Below are positions 56,101-64,000 of a stretch of DNA of 64,000 bases, piece after piece. Position numbers and translations under genes: made by a program. Origin of the DNA: Urinicoccus massiliensis (lineage in GTDB: Bacteria > Bacillota > Clostridia > Tissierellales > Peptoniphilaceae); the NCBI RefSeq assembly GCF_900120405.1, contig NZ_LT635493.1, positions 1-64,000 on the forward strand, written 5' to 3'. The notes below the pieces were generated by a model. That model made no database searches. It saw nothing but the letters and a program-made list of their open reading frames with translations, and had not been told where the DNA came from. How positions within the stretch are numbered: position 1 is the first letter of the stretch; each line of letters starts with the position of its first letter.

Positions 56101-56265
56101 GGAGATAAGTTCTGTATTTCCAGGGTCAAGTTTAAGAAGTTTGTTAACATCACGAAGTTCAGATTGAGTATGTTTAATCTCCGTATTTACTTGTTTTAGT
56201 GCAGTCTGTAATTTGGTAGTATCCCCACCAATCTCAACAGTTATCCCTTTTATTCTATTTGCCAA
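53200..56265 (-). CDS. Phage tail tape measure protein (TP901 family)
   Basis: 1021 residues, start TTG 56265 behind GAGGAGGTGAGATA. An N-terminal coiled coil (about 20-125) is followed by the TP901 tape-measure core (about 155-470, ASDFDSGMSKVKAVSGATG, TKFSASEAAEAMNYMAMAGW), a hydrophobic segment (about 480-560), then a long stretch of repeats with regularly spaced Trp (WNGIKEFFVNLW, WKGIKDFFANLW, WNGLKEF). Length sets tail length. The strong repeats produce large open shadow frames on the other strand. Confidence 0.93.
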   Translation of the reverse strand: MANRIKGITVEIGGDTTKLQTALKQVNTEIKHTQSELRDVNKLLKLDPGNTELISQKHKLLGQTLEETKNKLTSLKEAQKQAEQALAEGKISQEQYDALKREIIETEQALKSLERQGATTNQTLQNIAITGEKWQNTGQNIENVGRKMMPVSLAVAGLGVAAVKTASDFDSGMSKVKAVSGATGSDFDALREKAREMGAKTKFSASEAAEAMNYMAMAGWKSKDMIGGIEGIMNLAAASGEDLATTSDIVTDALTAFGLKAEDSSHFADVLAAASSNANTNVSLMGETFKYAAPIAGALGYSVEDTAVAIGLMANSGIKGSQAGTALRSGLTRLASPTKEVINGMSMLGLSIEDVQGLSLDETLSTFRVAFANLDGTQKAQAASMIFGKNAMSGMLAIINASEKDYNSLSDAIYNADGTAEKMAATMQDNLAGQLKILQSALEELAISFGELLMPAVRKAVDILTKMVNGLNALPGPVKGIIAGIGLFIAALGPVLMIIGKLVWSIGTIMTKGPLIVGGITKIVRIFTGTLIPAITAVVSAIGIVPIAIGAVIAGLVLLWKKCDWFREGVISIWETIKESTVAIWNGIKEFFVNLWQGISDSWTSTWTEITSFLSEFWSGFIEGVKTTWKGIKDFFANLWNGLSEEWNSIWASITTFLTESWNTFIEGSKSLWQSLGEFFTSLWTGIQTTFTNIWTAISTTTTEVFTAVGEFIKTTWEGIKTLISTVLDAIKVKIETIWNGLKEFLTTVITAIGTFISTSWTNIKTTIETILTSIKTVLESIWNGIKTFISSTMNNIKTFVSSAWNSIKSTISSAVNTAKSAVTSAFNSMKSAISSSMSNILSSIRNGFNNAVNHIKNLASQAYTWGADMINGIARGIRSAISNVTSAVSNVASTIRSYLHFSVPDVGPLTDYESWMPDFMQGLSKGIEKSRRLVQSSMKNVASDMVLSPNISAVGMAGFDKESAVNGIDIGRQISDALANINLKSENSGDIVIPVYLGGTLLDEVIVNASMRKNLRSGGR

Positions 56266-56307
56266 TATCTCACCTCCTCTTTAGAGATATATTTATCAGT
56301 GTTTTTA

Positions 56308-56354
56308 TTGATGTTTTTATCAATTTTTGCTATACTTATCTTGAGGTGATAAGT
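56308..56354 (+). promoter_or_regulatory. Promoter and operator of the toxin-antitoxin pair
   Basis: TTGATG (56308-56313), 17 bp, TATACT (56331-56336) on the plus strand, against the direction of the tail operon. ACTTATC (56334-56340) and GATAAGT (56348-56354) form a perfect 7-bp inverted repeat spanning the -10 edge and the ribosome-binding site (GAGGTG), the expected place for antitoxin autorepression. Confidence 0.75.
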
Positions 56355-56678
56355 ATGAATTTTGTAAAAGAATTATCCAATAAGACTGTATCCATTTCTG
56401 AATTTAATCGAGGCCTAGCTGGACGTATTTTCGATGATGTCAAAGTGAACGGTTCTAAGGTCGTATTAAAGAACAACACTCCTGAGTGCATTCTTCTTTC
56501 CCCTGATGAATATACGAAACTCATTGATGAGCTCGAAGATGCAAGAGATCTTATGCTTGCCAATACAAGGATGTCATCAATGGATAAATCCGATTTAATT
56601 TCTCAAGGTGAATTTGAAAAAGCCTTCCATATCGATTTAAATGAAGTCTCTCCTCTTGATGAGGACGAAATCGAATGA
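56355..56678 (+). CDS. Phd/YefM-family antitoxin
   Basis: 107 residues from ATG 56355 (GAGGTG upstream); the longer frame lacks a ribosome-binding site. VSISEFNRGLAGRIFDDV, GSKVVLKNNTPECILLSPDEY is the Phd/YefM DNA-binding fold; the acidic C-terminus (EVSPLDEDEIE) should wrap the toxin. It overlaps the toxin gene by 4 bases (ATGA). Confidence 0.88.
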   Translation: MNFVKELSNKTVSISEFNRGLAGRIFDDVKVNGSKVVLKNNTPECILLSPDEYTKLIDELEDARDLMLANTRMSSMDKSDLISQGEFEKAFHIDLNEVSPLDEDEIE

Positions 56679-57004
56679 ACTATAAACTATCCTTTATAAA
56701 AGAAGCCATCCAAGACTATCAAGCCTTAGATGGATCTCAAAGAAAAATTGTCGATAAAGCACTTAAGAGGATCTTAATAAATCCTCTTCCTAATACTGAA
56801 GGTGGCTATGGCAAGCCTCTTTCTAACCTTTCTGATTCTAAGCTTGCTGGTCTTATGAAAATTAAACTTAAGAGTTCAGGTCTTAGAATCGTTTATAAAT
56901 TGGAAAAATCAGATGATGAAGTTCTTGTCATTATTATCGGTGCAAGAGCGGAATCCAAAGTCTATAAAGATGCTGAAAAAAGAGTAGCTAAACTTGAAGA
57001 TTAA
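56675..57004 (+). CDS. RelE/ParE-family toxin
   Basis: 109 residues: YKLSFIKEAIQDYQALDGSQ, then LKRILINPLPNTEGGYGKPL, GLMKIKLKSSGLRIVYKLE and VLVIIIGARAESKVYKDAEKR, a full RelE/ParE fold with the basic residues used in ribosome-bound mRNA cleavage (Lys/Arg in KIKL and RIVYK). It is the only gene pair on the plus strand in the phage late region; its TAA shares bases with the stop of gpGT on the other strand (TTAA, 57001-57004). Confidence 0.88.
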   Translation: MNYKLSFIKEAIQDYQALDGSQRKIVDKALKRILINPLPNTEGGYGKPLSNLSDSKLAGLMKIKLKSSGLRIVYKLEKSDDEVLVIIIGARAESKVYKDAEKRVAKLED

Positions 57005-60634: not shown

Positions 60635-61321
60635 TTACCTCCAAGTGTTTTTAATTTTGTTTAATCTTTCTTCTACTTCGCTCATTGAATGAGTCCTTAC
60701 CTCTTTATTTATCTTTGTTAAAAGTGAGTTTGTAACTGCTCGTCTTGAGAAGACCATGTTCGTAACTTTTTCATCTTTTCTTTTATCAGTGAGAGTTCCA
60801 TCGCAAAAGCCCATCTCAATAGCCTTGTTCTTATCAAACCAAGTCTCCCCGTCCATTAGATTTGAAATCTCTTCTCTGGATAAACCTGTCTTAATCTCAT
60901 AAGCATTGATGATTGATTCCTTAACTTCCTTTAACATATCTATAGCTTTTTGCATTTCTTTCGAGTCACCAATAGCTACAGTTAAAGGGTTGTGAATCAT
61001 CATTAATGATGTAGGACTCATCAATACTTCAGTTCCTGCCATAGCAATGACCGATGCTGCTGATGCTGCAAGCCCATCTATCTTAATGGTCACATTTCCC
61101 TTGTGTTCTAAAAGCATGGTGTAAATTCTTGATGCTGCAATACAATCTCCACCAGGGGAGTTGATCCACACAGTTATATCTCCACTTTTGTTTTTTAATT
61201 CTTCAAAAAAGAGCCTTGGTGTGATTTCATCATCAAACCAAGACTCTTCTGCTATAACTCCATCTATATAGAGTTCATTTGAATTCTTATTCCAATTCCA
61301 AAATATTCTATTATTCTTCAT
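60635..61321 (-). CDS. ClpP-like phage head maturation protease
   Basis: 228 residues: WINSPGGDCIAASRIY, DGLAASAASVIAMAG (nucleophile Ser87 by analogy with ClpP), SLMMIHNPLTVAIGD (His110) and EISNLMDGETWFDKNKAIEMG. The phage form of ClpP/S49-type protease, which trims the scaffold part of the capsid protein. It overlaps the portal gene end by 11 bases. Confidence 0.92.
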   Translation of the reverse strand: MKNNRIFWNWNKNSNELYIDGVIAEESWFDDEITPRLFFEELKNKSGDITVWINSPGGDCIAASRIYTMLLEHKGNVTIKIDGLAASAASVIAMAGTEVLMSPTSLMMIHNPLTVAIGDSKEMQKAIDMLKEVKESIINAYEIKTGLSREEISNLMDGETWFDKNKAIEMGFCDGTLTDKRKDEKVTNMVFSRRAVTNSLLTKINKEVRTHSMSEVEERLNKIKNTWR

Positions 61322-62549
61322 TAGGACTTATTTCTTCTCCTTTCTGCTGATAAAAACTACCTGCTTTATCAAGTGGTAGCATATTTCCATTTACAAGGTA
61401 TAAGTCACCACCTTCTTCAGCTGAAATCCTATCAAGATTTTCTAATTCTCTTATGTCATTTGCACTCATCCACCCATTCTGTCTTCCTACTGCATAACCA
61501 TTCATTCTTGATTCATAGTCTCCTCTTAGAAGTCCATCAAGATTAAATTTAATAAAGTAGTTTTCTTTTTCTTTTTTTGTTAATAGTGCTCTTTCCAAGG
61601 ATTGCTCCCAACGAACAATCCAAGGATCAAGAGTGTATTTAACAAATTCAAGTGACTGTTGTTCTATATTTGAAAATGATGACTTCTCCAAGTCGCCAAT
61701 CATATGAGGTGGTATTCTAAATATCCTTGCTATCTCATTTAACTGAAACTTTCTAGTTTCCAAAAACTGGGCCTCACTTGGTGCTATGGCTATAGGTTGA
61801 TACTTCATCCCTTCTTCAAGTACAGCCACTTTGTTGGCGTTCTTAGGTCCCTGAAAGGCAGCATTCCATGACGCTCTAACTCTTTCTGGGTCTTTAATAA
61901 TACCTGGATGCTCTAAAACTCCACCTGGTTGTGCTCCATTTTGAAAGAATGACGCTCCGTAATCTTCACAAGCCATAGCCATACCAATAGCATTCTTAGC
62001 CATTGTAATTGGCGAGTATCCAATAAGGCCATCAAAACCAAGTCCAGGTATATGAAGGACATCTTCTTTTAAAAGATAAACTTCTTCTGATTTATGATTG
62101 TATTTATAGAAGATTTCTCCATCTTCACTTCTCATTACAGTCATCTTATTTGGCATTAATGGGTAGAGTCCAATAACTTCATTTCTTCCATTACGTATTA
62201 TCTGAGAATAGGCATTCCCCCACAAAAGAAGGTGAGTCATTAATGTTTCCCTAAATACAAATGAAGTCATCTCTGTATTTGGTTCATCGTGCAAAAGAAA
62301 ATATATGACGTGGTCTTTTGCTTTTTCTTTTGAGTTTGAGTCTCCTCTTTTATATAGATGAAGAGGAAGTCCTGCTAAGGTTTCAGCAAGAACCCTCACG
62401 CATGAATAAACTGCCGTCATCTGCATGGCAGTAAATTCGTTTACATTCCTGCCTGCTGTTGTTCTCCCAAATAAAAAAGACGATGAAGATATCCTCTCCC
62501 CGTCTTTAGGTTTGTCTCTCGACTTAAATATTAAATTTAAAATGTTTAT
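61311..62549 (-). CDS. Phage portal protein, natural start codon changed to ATA
   Basis: 412 residues if read from ATA 62549, where AAGGAGG lies seven bases upstream and the frame reads (I)NILNLIFKSRDKPKDGERI, TTAGRNVNEF. An ATG exists only at 62426 (MQMTAVYSCVRVLAETLAGL), without a ribosome-binding site and inside the conserved domain. Portal motifs: MTHLLLWGNAY, MACEDYGASFFQNGAQPGG, FRIPPHMIGDLEKSSFSNIE. It forms the dodecameric DNA gate of the capsid. The start-codon change would strongly lower its synthesis. Confidence 0.9.
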   Translation of the reverse strand: MNILNLIFKSRDKPKDGERISSSSFLFGRTTAGRNVNEFTAMQMTAVYSCVRVLAETLAGLPLHLYKRGDSNSKEKAKDHVIYFLLHDEPNTEMTSFVFRETLMTHLLLWGNAYSQIIRNGRNEVIGLYPLMPNKMTVMRSEDGEIFYKYNHKSEEVYLLKEDVLHIPGLGFDGLIGYSPITMAKNAIGMAMACEDYGASFFQNGAQPGGVLEHPGIIKDPERVRASWNAAFQGPKNANKVAVLEEGMKYQPIAIAPSEAQFLETRKFQLNEIARIFRIPPHMIGDLEKSSFSNIEQQSLEFVKYTLDPWIVRWEQSLERALLTKKEKENYFIKFNLDGLLRGDYESRMNGYAVGRQNGWMSANDIRELENLDRISAEEGGDLYLVNGNMLPLDKAGSFYQQKGEEISPNEE

Positions 62550-62563
62550 ATTACCACCTCCTT

Positions 62564-62602
62564 AAAAGTAGGTATGAAAAAAGCACCTACTTTTGTAGAT
62601 GC
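62564..62602 (-). terminator. Terminator with an overlapping alternative hairpin in the portal leader
   Basis: On the minus strand GCATCTAC-AAAA-GTAGGTGC is followed by six T, a terminator behind the Fic gene. The same 3' arm (AAAAGTAGGT) is perfectly complementary to ACCTACTTTT just downstream (62564-62573 with 62585-62594), giving a second hairpin that would break the terminator and bury the T-run. It ends at the portal ribosome-binding site. Confidence 0.75.
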
Positions 62603-62610
62603 TAATAGCT

Positions 62611-63654
62611 TTAAAATTTAATATACTTAGTTGCTCTACCGCTACCTAATTGTTTAATTAAGCCACTGTCTTTTAATTCTTTTAATGCTCTTTCTATAGT
62701 TCTTTGAGAAATGTCTGGGCAAAGTACTACTATATCTGATTTAGATAATGGTTCTAAGGAATTATCAAATATCTTCATCACTCTATCTGAAGAAGTTATA
62801 GATTTTTCTGCTATTAGTTTAAATCTTTCATCACACTGGCTATATGCTTTGTAGATGACCGAAAGCATATATCTTATAAATGGTAATTCATCACTCGTAC
62901 CGTCATGCCAATCTTCACTTGAAGCTTGCAATTCTTCATAGTAAATATCTTTTGTCTCTTCAATAATCATTTCTAGTGAAATATATTTTCCTACAAAAAA
63001 TCCATTTTTATAGAGTAGTAGCAGCGTTAATAGCCTTGACATTCTACCATTTCCATCAGCGAATGGATGGATACATAAAAAATCATGAATCACAGTTGGT
63101 ATTAGAAGTAATGGCGGGATTTCTAAACTAACAGCTTCATTATAAGCCTCAATCATTCTATCAATATATATTTCTGTTTCAAAAGCTGATACAGGCTGAA
63201 ATCTTACTTTTTTCTGACCAAGGGAATTTACTTCAACGATGCTATTATCCATTGTTTTAAATTTTCCTTTATGGCTTTCCCCTGAATAAGAATAAAGCCT
63301 ATTGTGTAGGGTCAAAATATTGTTTTTTGTGAATTCTATATTGTCATAGTTTTCATGAATGATATCTAAAACTTCTCTGTAACCATATATTTCTTCTTCA
63401 TTTCTATTCTTAGGTTCACTTTTTTTATTCATCAACTCTTCTAGTCTGGTATCATTTGTTGAAATACCTTCTATTGCATTAGATGATTTAGTGGACTGAA
63501 TTTTTGCAACCTCTATCATTTTATCGAGAACATCGGAAAAATTAGCTACGTATAGCTCCTGTTTTCCTTTATATTCATAGATCTTTGATATTAAATCATA
63601 CATTTTTGCAGGTATATTTAAATTTAAAAGCTTTGAATAATTAAATTCTCTCAT
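62611..63654 (-). CDS. Fic family AMP-transferase-type protein with C-terminal winged helix
   Basis: 347 residues. The Fic active-site motif HPFADGNGRMSR (His196) is complete. An N-terminal inhibitory helix SNAIEG (about 58-63) fits the (S/T)xxxE(G/N) rule of class II Fic proteins. The C-terminal 65 residues (LSKSDIVVLCPDISQRTIERALKEL, then GLIKQLGSGRATKYIKF) form a winged helix. Such proteins typically transfer AMP from ATP to target proteins; the target here is unknown. It interrupts the usual terL-portal order as a self-contained gene with its own promoter and terminator. Confidence 0.9.
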   Translation of the reverse strand: MREFNYSKLLNLNIPAKMYDLISKIYEYKGKQELYVANFSDVLDKMIEVAKIQSTKSSNAIEGISTNDTRLEELMNKKSEPKNRNEEEIYGYREVLDIIHENYDNIEFTKNNILTLHNRLYSYSGESHKGKFKTMDNSIVEVNSLGQKKVRFQPVSAFETEIYIDRMIEAYNEAVSLEIPPLLLIPTVIHDFLCIHPFADGNGRMSRLLTLLLLYKNGFFVGKYISLEMIIEETKDIYYEELQASSEDWHDGTSDELPFIRYMLSVIYKAYSQCDERFKLIAEKSITSSDRVMKIFDNSLEPLSKSDIVVLCPDISQRTIERALKELKDSGLIKQLGSGRATKYIKF

Positions 63655-63673
63655 GTTCTATCACCACCTTCCT

Positions 63674-63730
63674 CGCCATTATATCGTATATGGCGTATAT
63701 AAATCAATGCTGGCGAGATTAATTTCGCCA
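63674..63730 (-). promoter_or_regulatory. Promoter and operator-like repeats of the Fic gene
   Basis: TTGATT (63702-63707), 18 bp, TATAAT (63678-63683) on the minus strand. Two inverted repeats with the same TGGCG half-site flank it: CGCCA/TGGCG (63674-63678 and 63691-63695) over the -10, and TGGCGA/TCGCCA (63711-63716 and 63725-63730) just upstream of the -35. The Fic winged helix is the obvious candidate to bind them. Confidence 0.72.
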
Positions 63731-63770
63731 TTTTAATAGATTTGGCTATGATAAAGCAAAAATAGCGAGA

Positions 63771-64000
63771 TTAAAATACAATCAGACCCCTGTCGTCATA
63801 AACAGATTCACTTGTATCATTACCACACCTTATAGCCCTGTCAAGTGCCATAATTGTAGCAATAACCCCATCAATCTTTTCTGTAGACTTTTCCTTATCT
63901 GCCTTAATGTTTCCAGCGGGATCAGTTCGTATGAAGATATTATCCATCATCCACCTTAGTACTGGATGACCCCCATGGGCTATTTTTCTTTCAAGGGTTA
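63771..64000 (-). CDS. Terminase large subunit, C-terminal end (runs off the window)
   Basis: 76 codons are visible, ending with TAA at 63771. The frame reads LERKIAHGGHPVLRWMMDN, IRTDPAGNIKADKEKSTEKID, VIATIMALDRAIRCG and SVYDDRGLIVF, the well-known C-terminus of phage large terminase (nuclease domain end). It would be the DNA-packaging motor; its upstream part and TerS lie outside. Confidence 0.92.
   Translation of the reverse strand, partial: TLERKIAHGGHPVLRWMMDNIFIRTDPAGNIKADKEKSTEKIDGVIATIMALDRAIRCGNDTSESVYDDRGLIVF

What the first reader, a model, noticed from the sequence alone, without database searches (positions are those of the whole stretch)
62611..63730. Self-regulated Fic gene wedged between terL and portal
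Seen: class II Fic protein with complete HPFADGNGRMSR motif, inhibitory SNAIEG helix and a C-terminal winged helix. It has its own TTGATT-18-TATAAT promoter bracketed by two TGGCG palindromes and its own terminator. Inference: a moron gene expressed in the lysogen, with autorepression; it could serve superinfection exclusion or host fitness.
Basis: partly seen in the sequence, partly recalled or inferred. Interest (0 to 1): 0.55.

Follow-up and report, generated by a model that had tools for sequence, protein, structure and literature searches.

The report
Phage Fic enzyme reading its promoter
A prophage carries, in a spot where related phages swap in different extra genes, a protein-modifying Fic enzyme that very probably also switches down its own gene, and across its relatives the DNA address it reads and the part of the protein that reads it have changed together.

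Summary
Window 62611-63654(-) encodes a class II Fic protein with a C-terminal winged helix between terL and portal of a Peptoniphilus-like prophage.

Moron status was tested. In 31 loci with portal >=90% identical, the terL-portal slot is empty in 3, holds this Fic in 3 (two of them the window's own phage) and nine other cargos in 25. The 'own terminator' belongs to the slot: 15 of 31 have it, behind several cargos.

The palindromes are a tandemly repeated 52-bp promoter/operator unit. Homologs 45-50% identical keep its position over the -10 but use other half-sites (CCCTTA, CGCTTA, CCTAA...). On a catalytic-domain tree, half-site changes coincide with changes in the recognition helix: of 2135 residue/base pairs only 318/col7, 321/col5 and 322/col8 pass Bonferroni; under a branch-weighted null they still lead their columns, but none passes it. 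This supports binding to its own promoter.

Fic autorepression is known (CccR); the diversified operator code was not found in print. Function is unproven; anti-phage defence is the leading guess. Expression in the lysogen was not testable.

The parts
62611..63654 (-). Fic gene, 347 aa, class II Fic with C-terminal winged helix
63466..63483 (-). inhibitory helix motif SNAIEG (residues 58-63)
   Evidence: translation; S58, N59, I61, E62, G63 invariant in 25 aligned sequences
63034..63069 (-). FIC motif HPFADGNGRMSR (residues 196-207)
62668..62706 (-). recognition helix (residues 317-329), holding specificity positions 318, 321, 322 and possibly 325
   Evidence: AF2 helix 317-329; co-change test
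62617..62658 (-). wing (strands 333-336 and 343-346); residue 335 co-changes weakly with DNA column 6
63667..63718 (-). proximal 52-bp promoter/operator unit: half-sites TCTCGCCA 63711-63718, TACGCCA 63691-63697, TGGCGAGG 63671-63678; -35 TTGATT 63702-63707; -10 TATAAT 63678-63683
   Evidence: conserved position in homologs
63719..63770 (-). distal, partly diverged copy of the same unit: half-sites TCTCGCTA 63763-63770, ATAGCCA 63743-63749, TGGCGAAA 63723-63730; weak -35 TTGCTT 63754-63759 and -10 TAAAAT 63730-63735
62582..62603 (-). intrinsic terminator belonging to the slot boundary (shared by several unrelated cargos)
63771..63998 (-). 3' end of terL (runs off the window); left wall of the slot
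61311..62549 (-). portal gene; right wall of the slot; probable AUA start at 62547-62549 (the listed ATG ORF starts at 62426)
   Evidence: start judged by eye

Best explanation
It is a moron: an accessory gene swapped in and out of a variable slot between terL and portal. The product is an autoinhibited class II Fic enzyme (predicted AMP-transferase) fused to a winged helix. As a dimer or higher oligomer it binds half-sites about 20 bp apart that straddle the spacer and -10 of its own promoter, and represses it, keeping the enzyme scarce in the lysogen. Each lineage of the family uses its own half-site word, read by residues 318, 321, 322 and possibly 325 of the recognition helix. Shown here: gene, slot, operator architecture, co-change of helix and operator. 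Inferred: binding, repression, AMPylation, and a role as an anti-phage or anti-competitor effector released when repression or autoinhibition fails.
For: Slot: of 31 loci from close phages (26 distinct gap sequences; some loci may be one phage in two collections) 28 carry a cargo, 10 kinds in all; 3 are empty with a 137-bp gap. Operator: of 100 non-identical upstreams, 80 have a palindrome with >=7 of 8 paired positions against about 12 per 100 in dinucleotide shuffles; 54 of the 80 are centred 1-2 bp before the -10. Half-site ladder at -53, -33(rev), -20, 0, +20(rev), +40(rev) against a background of about 0.2 per position, 104 sequences. Co-change on the catalytic-domain tree: 318/col7 4e-8, 322/col8 7e-6, 321/col5 1.4e-5, the only 3 of 2135 tests under Bonferroni. 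Under a branch-weighted null (20000 draws) they remain first for their columns, p 5e-5, 1.5e-4 and 5e-5, where 5e-5 is the floor of the simulation. R318 goes with C in 16 of 16 sequences, R322 with C in 21 of 22, G322 with A in 39 of 39; E321 with C in 88 of 96, other residues there in 0 of 8 (the two arms weighted half each). 318/321/322/325 are spaced i, i+3, i+4, i+7 in the modelled helix. In the own genome exact CGCCA-N12-TGGCGA occurs 3 times, two of them at the two Fic copies. Precedent: CccR autorepresses through palindromes near -35/-10 (PMC9755527, passages).
Against: No binding, expression or enzyme data. Under the branch-weighted null no pair passes Bonferroni. Raw mutual information put a catalytic-domain column (126) marginally above the best helix column at one redundancy cut and several catalytic columns above the helix at the other, and a partial Mantel test ranked catalytic windows above the helix; I read both as shared ancestry, which the tree-based test handles better. 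In the strict subset (79 sequences) 318/col7 is not among the top five, and in two subsets residue 20 does slightly better than 322 for col8. Among the most distant pairs (catalytic identity <0.62, n 15) helix match predicts the operator only modestly, 0.72 against 0.56. 42 of 175 homologs show fewer than 7 of 10 paired positions at the fixed geometry, some of them real but with two unlike half-sites. The promoter pattern alone is at chance level in this AT-rich DNA.
Confidence: 0.75

Rival explanations
1. The palindromes are bound by another factor (phage or host), and the Fic winged helix has a different job, such as placing the enzyme near nucleoid proteins.
For: CbFic2, a Fic with a C-terminal winged helix, binds random DNA with nanomolar affinity (PMC10628234, passages).
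Against: The half-site changes with the protein's own recognition helix on several branches of the tree; a foreign factor would not predict this. The operator travels with the gene across genera.
Confidence: 0.08
2. The gene is a toxin-antitoxin type module whose antitoxin is a small neighbour, as with EcSofic and AS1.
For: EcSofic is held by a 47-aa protein encoded downstream (PMC12249575, passages).
Against: Only 116 bp lie between the terL stop and the Fic start and 61 bp between the Fic stop and the likely portal start, less than a 47-aa gene needs; a gene overlapping its neighbours was not excluded. The inhibitory helix is already inside the protein.
Confidence: 0.07
3. The gene is mainly a transcription factor with a relict enzyme, acting on other phage or host promoters.
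For: One further exact operator in the own genome lies about 95 bp upstream of a KilA-N gene in a mobile element.
Against: FIC motif and inhibitory helix are invariant in 25 aligned sequences apart from A60 and A199. The KilA-N operator lacks a good -35/-10 by eye and looks like a relic. Away from the Fic promoter the window has only matches with one or more mismatches.
Confidence: 0.1

Closest known systems
CccR of Yersinia pseudotuberculosis (class II Fic with C-terminal HTH, autorepressor, T6SS effector)
   Same: Class II Fic, C-terminal HTH, inverted repeat near -35/-10 of its own promoter (PMC9755527, passages)
   Different: CccR footprint is 10-bp arms with a 26-bp spacer; here arms are 12-13 bp apart in a repeated ladder with a lineage-specific word. 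Structure 7xux, which I take to be CccR (recalled), matches the model at 19% identity, TM 0.54. FtsZ targeting and secretion not tested here.
SoFic / EcSofic
   Same: Fic domain, C-terminal winged helix in the SoFic crystal (passage), PADLOC SoFic hit E 4e-38
   Different: NCBIfam SoFic equivalog 43.6 bits against a cut-off of 550; no room in the flanking gaps for an AS1-like gene; DNA binding of SoFic not shown (PMC10628234, passage)
Fic protein of Bordetella bronchiseptica, PDB 8uqu
   Same: Closest solved structure: E 8e-79 by sequence over residues 23-346, 38% identity, TM 0.92 by target length
   Different: The entry title speaks of the N-terminal domain only; no paper naming 8UQU in the library searched
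SPP1 ORFs 3-5, morons between gene 2 and gene 6 (terL and portal)
   Same: Same genomic slot used for accessory genes (PMC6316719, passages)
   Different: Virulent phage; its ORFs were not compared with these cargos
LacI family recognition code
   Same: Local operators analysed against amino acids of the repressors (PMC2978694, title and start of abstract in the search listing)
   Different: Not Fic enzymes

Membership tests
Class II Fic AMP-transferase | FIC motif HxFx(D/E)GNGRxxR (recalled form) | tested here: met
   HPFADGNGRMSR, residues 196-207
Class II Fic AMP-transferase | (S/T)xxxE(G/N) inhibitory helix N-terminal to the motif | tested here: met
   SNAIEG residues 58-63 at the end of helix 40-62
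Class II Fic AMP-transferase | transfers AMP to a target | not testable with these tools
   needs biochemistry
CccR-like autorepressing Fic | C-terminal DNA-binding HTH | tested here: met
   Pfam DIP2311-like_C 6e-5, below cut-off; AF2 winged helix
CccR-like autorepressing Fic | inverted repeat over its own promoter | tested here: met
CccR-like autorepressing Fic | 10-bp arms separated by 26 bp | tested here: not met
   arms 12-13 bp apart, ladder of ~20-bp steps
CccR-like autorepressing Fic | binds and represses | not testable with these tools
   co-change of helix and operator only
SoFic anti-phage system | NCBIfam SoFic equivalog above cut-off | tested here: not met
   43.6 vs 550 bits; PADLOC SoFic E 4e-38
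SoFic anti-phage system | protects against phage | not testable with these tools
   needs phage challenge
Phage moron | present or absent in otherwise closely related phages | tested here: met
   of 31 loci 3 have it, 3 are empty, 25 hold another cargo
Phage moron | own promoter | tested here: met
   conserved promoter in homologs
Phage moron | own terminator | tested here: not met
   terminator shared with other cargos, 15 of 31
Phage moron | transcribed in the lysogen | not testable with these tools
   no transcript data
Type II toxin-antitoxin pair | adjacent antitoxin gene | tested here: not met
   flanking gaps of 116 and 61 bp are too short for a 47-aa gene

The most novel reading that the evidence does not exclude
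The operator word acts as a compatibility type. A resident Fic represses an incoming element's Fic only if both use the same word; an element with another word expresses its Fic freely on entry, a burst of a protein-modifying effector that harms the cell or the resident phage. The moron would then carry a second, phage-repressor-like immunity system separate from the lysogeny repressor, with diversification of the word driven by it. Not excluded: co-resident Fic copies use different words in 6 of 7 genomes, but about 85% is expected by chance.
Probability: 0.12. Interest if true: 0.8.

Novelty: new variant of a known kind. Interest (0 to 1): 0.6.

Why it matters
The CccR paper (passage) says class II Fic proteins are about 80% of all Fic proteins and that nearly nothing is known of their functions and control. 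Here the family's DNA-binding half gets a readable code: from the recognition helix one can predict the operator, and so propose which Fic proteins regulate themselves and which promoters they touch. It also gives a natural series of related winged helices with differing specificity, and shows a phage slot, used from Peptoniphilus to Streptococcus phages, in which two different Fic types, toxin-antitoxin pairs and an abortive-infection gene replace one another: a good place to look for new anti-phage genes.

Tried and rejected
Raw mutual information and partial Mantel for helix-operator covariation: dominated by clade structure; catalytic columns rank as high or higher. Kept as adverse results; the tree-based co-change test was devised after seeing them.

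KilA-N site as a trans target: the operator-like stretch is kept in 8 near-identical copies of one mobile element (protein 98-100% identical; 3 of the 8 have one altered half-site), so it counts as one event; by eye it has no good -35/-10 and is not seen upstream of KilA-N homologs of 90% identity or less. Read as a relic; not settled.

Selection for different codes in one genome: 6 of 7 differ, but the chance expectation is about 85%; no support.

Small antitoxin next to Fic: no room in the flanking gaps. tRNA genes: none in the window.

Print searches: 'Fic protein' + 'inverted repeat' + 'own promoter' and 'Fic family protein' + phage + transcriptional regulator + AMPylation + operator each gave only the CccR paper; Fic + winged helix + autoregulation + AMPylation gave one 2009 paper, not opened. 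'Fic domain' with specificity/operator/recognition helix, two terms enough: 453 papers, 12 listed, none of the 12 with 'Fic domain'. Slot search: 24 papers, 15 listed, two searched for passages. Fic/prophage/superinfection/defence: 102 papers, 12 listed, none of the 12 with 'Fic family protein'. So 'not found in print' means: not in this open-access PMC library by these searches.

Rows dropped: the 104-sequence set leaves out operators with <6 of 10 paired positions, promoter score <8.5, or <5 of 6 paired core positions, and proteins >=95% identical in the catalytic part, from 175 with an operator call; rebuilt it with a slightly different residue range and got 103.

Full report
What is there. 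The window is the first 64 kb of contig 13 of a 2.09-Mb genome. Its best matches for Fic are Peptoniphilus raoultii (100%) and P. grossensis (99.7%) and two IMG/VR contigs (100%). The Fic gene (62611-63654, minus) sits between terL and an HK97-type portal gene on the same strand as the head genes. It has a complete FIC motif, the class II inhibitory helix and a C-terminal winged helix. The closest solved relative is a Bordetella bronchiseptica Fic, 8uqu. A second copy, 79% identical, lies elsewhere on the same contig; its neighbours did not look phage-like by eye (no family search made).

A swap slot. I compared the terL-portal gap in loci fetched by the portal protein. There are 31 loci with portal >=90% identical and terL found. 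Two of them are the window's phage itself; the 31 hold 26 distinct gap sequences, so some may be one phage in two collections. The gap is 137 bp and empty in 3. It holds this Fic in 3, another Fic with an N-terminal HTH_17 (below cut-off) in 3, a DUF3800 gene on the other strand in 7 (shortened in 2), a SnoaL-like protein (below cut-off) in 4, a 170-aa protein in 3, and five further cargos in 8. PADLOC matches the other Fic (PDC-S04, 1e-41) and one small cargo (PDC-S57, 2e-12); the remaining 7 of 9 scanned gave nothing better than E 0.0097. In more distant phages (portal about 70-75%) the gap is again short (about 120-190 bp) or holds, among others, an Abi_2/AbiD gene (L201), a HigBA-like pair (my label; HTH_3/Peptidase_M78 and a sub-threshold YoeB match, L204), RelB/ParE (L178), a PemK-like toxin (L228) and an aminoglycoside-adenylyltransferase-like gene (L196) (a chosen part of these cargos was scanned, and most of those, 7 of 10, have no PADLOC match below 1e-3). 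In Streptococcus phages Javan422, Javan191 and Javan105 the slot holds an HTH_17-Fic, RelB/ParE and a MerR-TipAS gene. SPP1 has morons (ORFs 3-5) in the corresponding place. So the moron reading stands, and the slot rather than the gene is the constant. This Fic family itself lies between terL and portal in 11 loci, about 7 distinct phages, of those fetched by the Fic protein. In Allofustis the terL is 88%, portal 74% and Fic 77% identical; in three metagenome phages (L007/L008, L009, L017) terL is about 80-84% and Fic only about 46%, with another operator word.

The terminator. AGCATCTAC...GTAGGTGCT-T6 at 62582-62603 also closes other cargos: 15 of 31 close loci have it, 12 of them with another cargo than this Fic, and so does the Allofustis phage. 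The empty slots lack it. It belongs to the slot boundary, not to Fic. Since 32 bp separate it from the likely portal start, portal transcription from further upstream would have to pass it; how is unknown.

The operator. The promoter region is a tandem repeat of 52 bp starting right after the terL stop: each unit has half-sites forward, forward, reverse, and a -35/-10 pair; in L002 the two copies agree at 32 of 52 positions. In the window the distal -35 is TTGCTT. Seven loci whose slot now holds DUF3800 keep the distal operator, which suggests that Fic was once there.

Architecture kept, word changed. Most homologs 69-91% identical, from Anaerococcus, Fenollaria, Ezakiella, Falseniella, Granulicatella, Lachnoanaerobaculum and others, keep nearly the same sequence; two of those shown (L028, L068) keep only the proximal part. 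Homologs at 45-50% keep the architecture with other words. Of 100 non-identical upstreams, 80 have >=7 of 8 paired positions in their best palindrome against about 12 in shuffles, and 54 of the 80 are centred within 1-2 bp before the -10. In a larger set 133 of 175 have >=7 of 10 paired positions at that fixed geometry, chosen as the best of several promoter candidates and three centres, without a shuffle control for that step. Extra half-sites fall at about +40 (45 of 104), -20 (49), -33 (36) and -53 bp (28) from the left half-site (neighbouring positions added).

The code. For 104 non-redundant homologs I built a tree from the catalytic part (residues 1-285, not the winged helix), mapped changes of seven half-site columns and all protein columns by parsimony, and asked which coincide. 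Of 2135 pairs three pass Bonferroni: residue 318 with column 7 (7 of 9 DNA changes), 322 with column 8 (5 of 5) and 321 with column 5 (all 3 changes of that residue). With branches drawn in proportion to their catalytic changes, the three have p 5e-5 (the floor of 20000 draws), 1.5e-4 and 5e-5, so none passes Bonferroni there, but each leads its column; next are wing residue 335 with column 6 (3e-4) and catalytic residue 112 with column 6 (1e-3). Leaving out the window's own clade keeps them first for columns 5, 7 and 8; the strict subset loses 318/column 7, and in two subsets residue 20 is slightly better than 322 for column 8. Arginine at 322 goes with C in 21 of 22 cases and glycine with A in 39 of 39; arginine at 318 with C in 16 of 16; no protein lacking E321 has C at column 5 (0 of 8), against 88 of 96 with it. 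Among pairs 60-70% identical in the catalytic part, operator identity rises from 0.29 with no shared helix residue (of five; 33 pairs) to 0.95 with all five (22 pairs); below 50% identity the trend is weaker (0.44, 0.33, 0.44, 0.56 for 0 to 3 shared). Residues were chosen, so it is illustration, not an independent test. Two simpler statistics did not single out the helix; shared ancestry confounds them.

Mechanism. Most likely the protein binds its own promoter through the winged helix and represses it, as CccR does. Half-sites about two helical turns apart lie on one face of the DNA; the repeated ladder suggests more than one dimer. What the enzyme modifies, and for what, cannot be read from sequence. 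A defence role is the leading guess because Sofic defends (abstract passage) and the slot's other cargos include toxin and abortive-infection genes. I give that role about 0.4, binding and repression about 0.85, moron status about 0.95.

Novelty. Fic autorepression is known for CccR; morons between terL and portal are known for SPP1. Not found in the searches made: an operator code for Fic proteins, its diversification, or this family's autoregulation.

Noticed in passing
window 62547-62549 and the same place in the close phages (L001, L134-L155, L214-L221, L225): The portal gene seems to start at AUA: 7 nt after GGAGG the codon ATA stands in all 27 distinct close sequences printed, empty slots included, while most portals about 74% identical have ATG there (read by eye). 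A conserved AUA start would be unusual.
   Followed up: partly
L136, L139, L150, L155, L215, L216, L220 (terL-portal gap): Loci with DUF3800 in the slot keep the distal Fic operator without a Fic gene: a relic or a solo operator.
   Followed up: partly
L423 3273-3295 (own genome, contig 12, 803772-803794): A third exact Fic-type operator about 95 bp upstream of a KilA-N gene (Pfam), beside two genes that look like serine recombinases by eye; the near-identical element occurs in several other genomes.
   Followed up: partly
window 56259-57004 (+): A pair that looks like antitoxin and ParE-like toxin on the strand opposite to the late genes, next to the tape-measure-like gene: a second accessory insertion (the ParE match is below cut-off, the antitoxin was not searched).
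   Followed up: no
L214-L220 (relatives of the own family): Portal genes 96-98% identical occur in seven other genera of the host family, a prophage type that seems to move between genera.
   Followed up: no
own genome C4:567-650 and C12:673561-673656, and single places in G043, G046, G055, G060: Short matches (58-89%) to only the first 26-35 residues of the portal ORF, in small open frames; cause unknown.
   Followed up: no
L466 685-1578 (Streptococcus phage Javan422); L467 956-1288 (Javan191): Annotated 'Huntingtin interacting protein E-like' is an HTH_17-Fic protein in the same terL-portal slot; the 'death on curing protein' of Javan191 is ParE-like by Pfam.
   Followed up: yes
L470-L481: Six genomes with two Fic copies of this family have two different operator words; the own genome has the same word twice.
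   Followed up: partly
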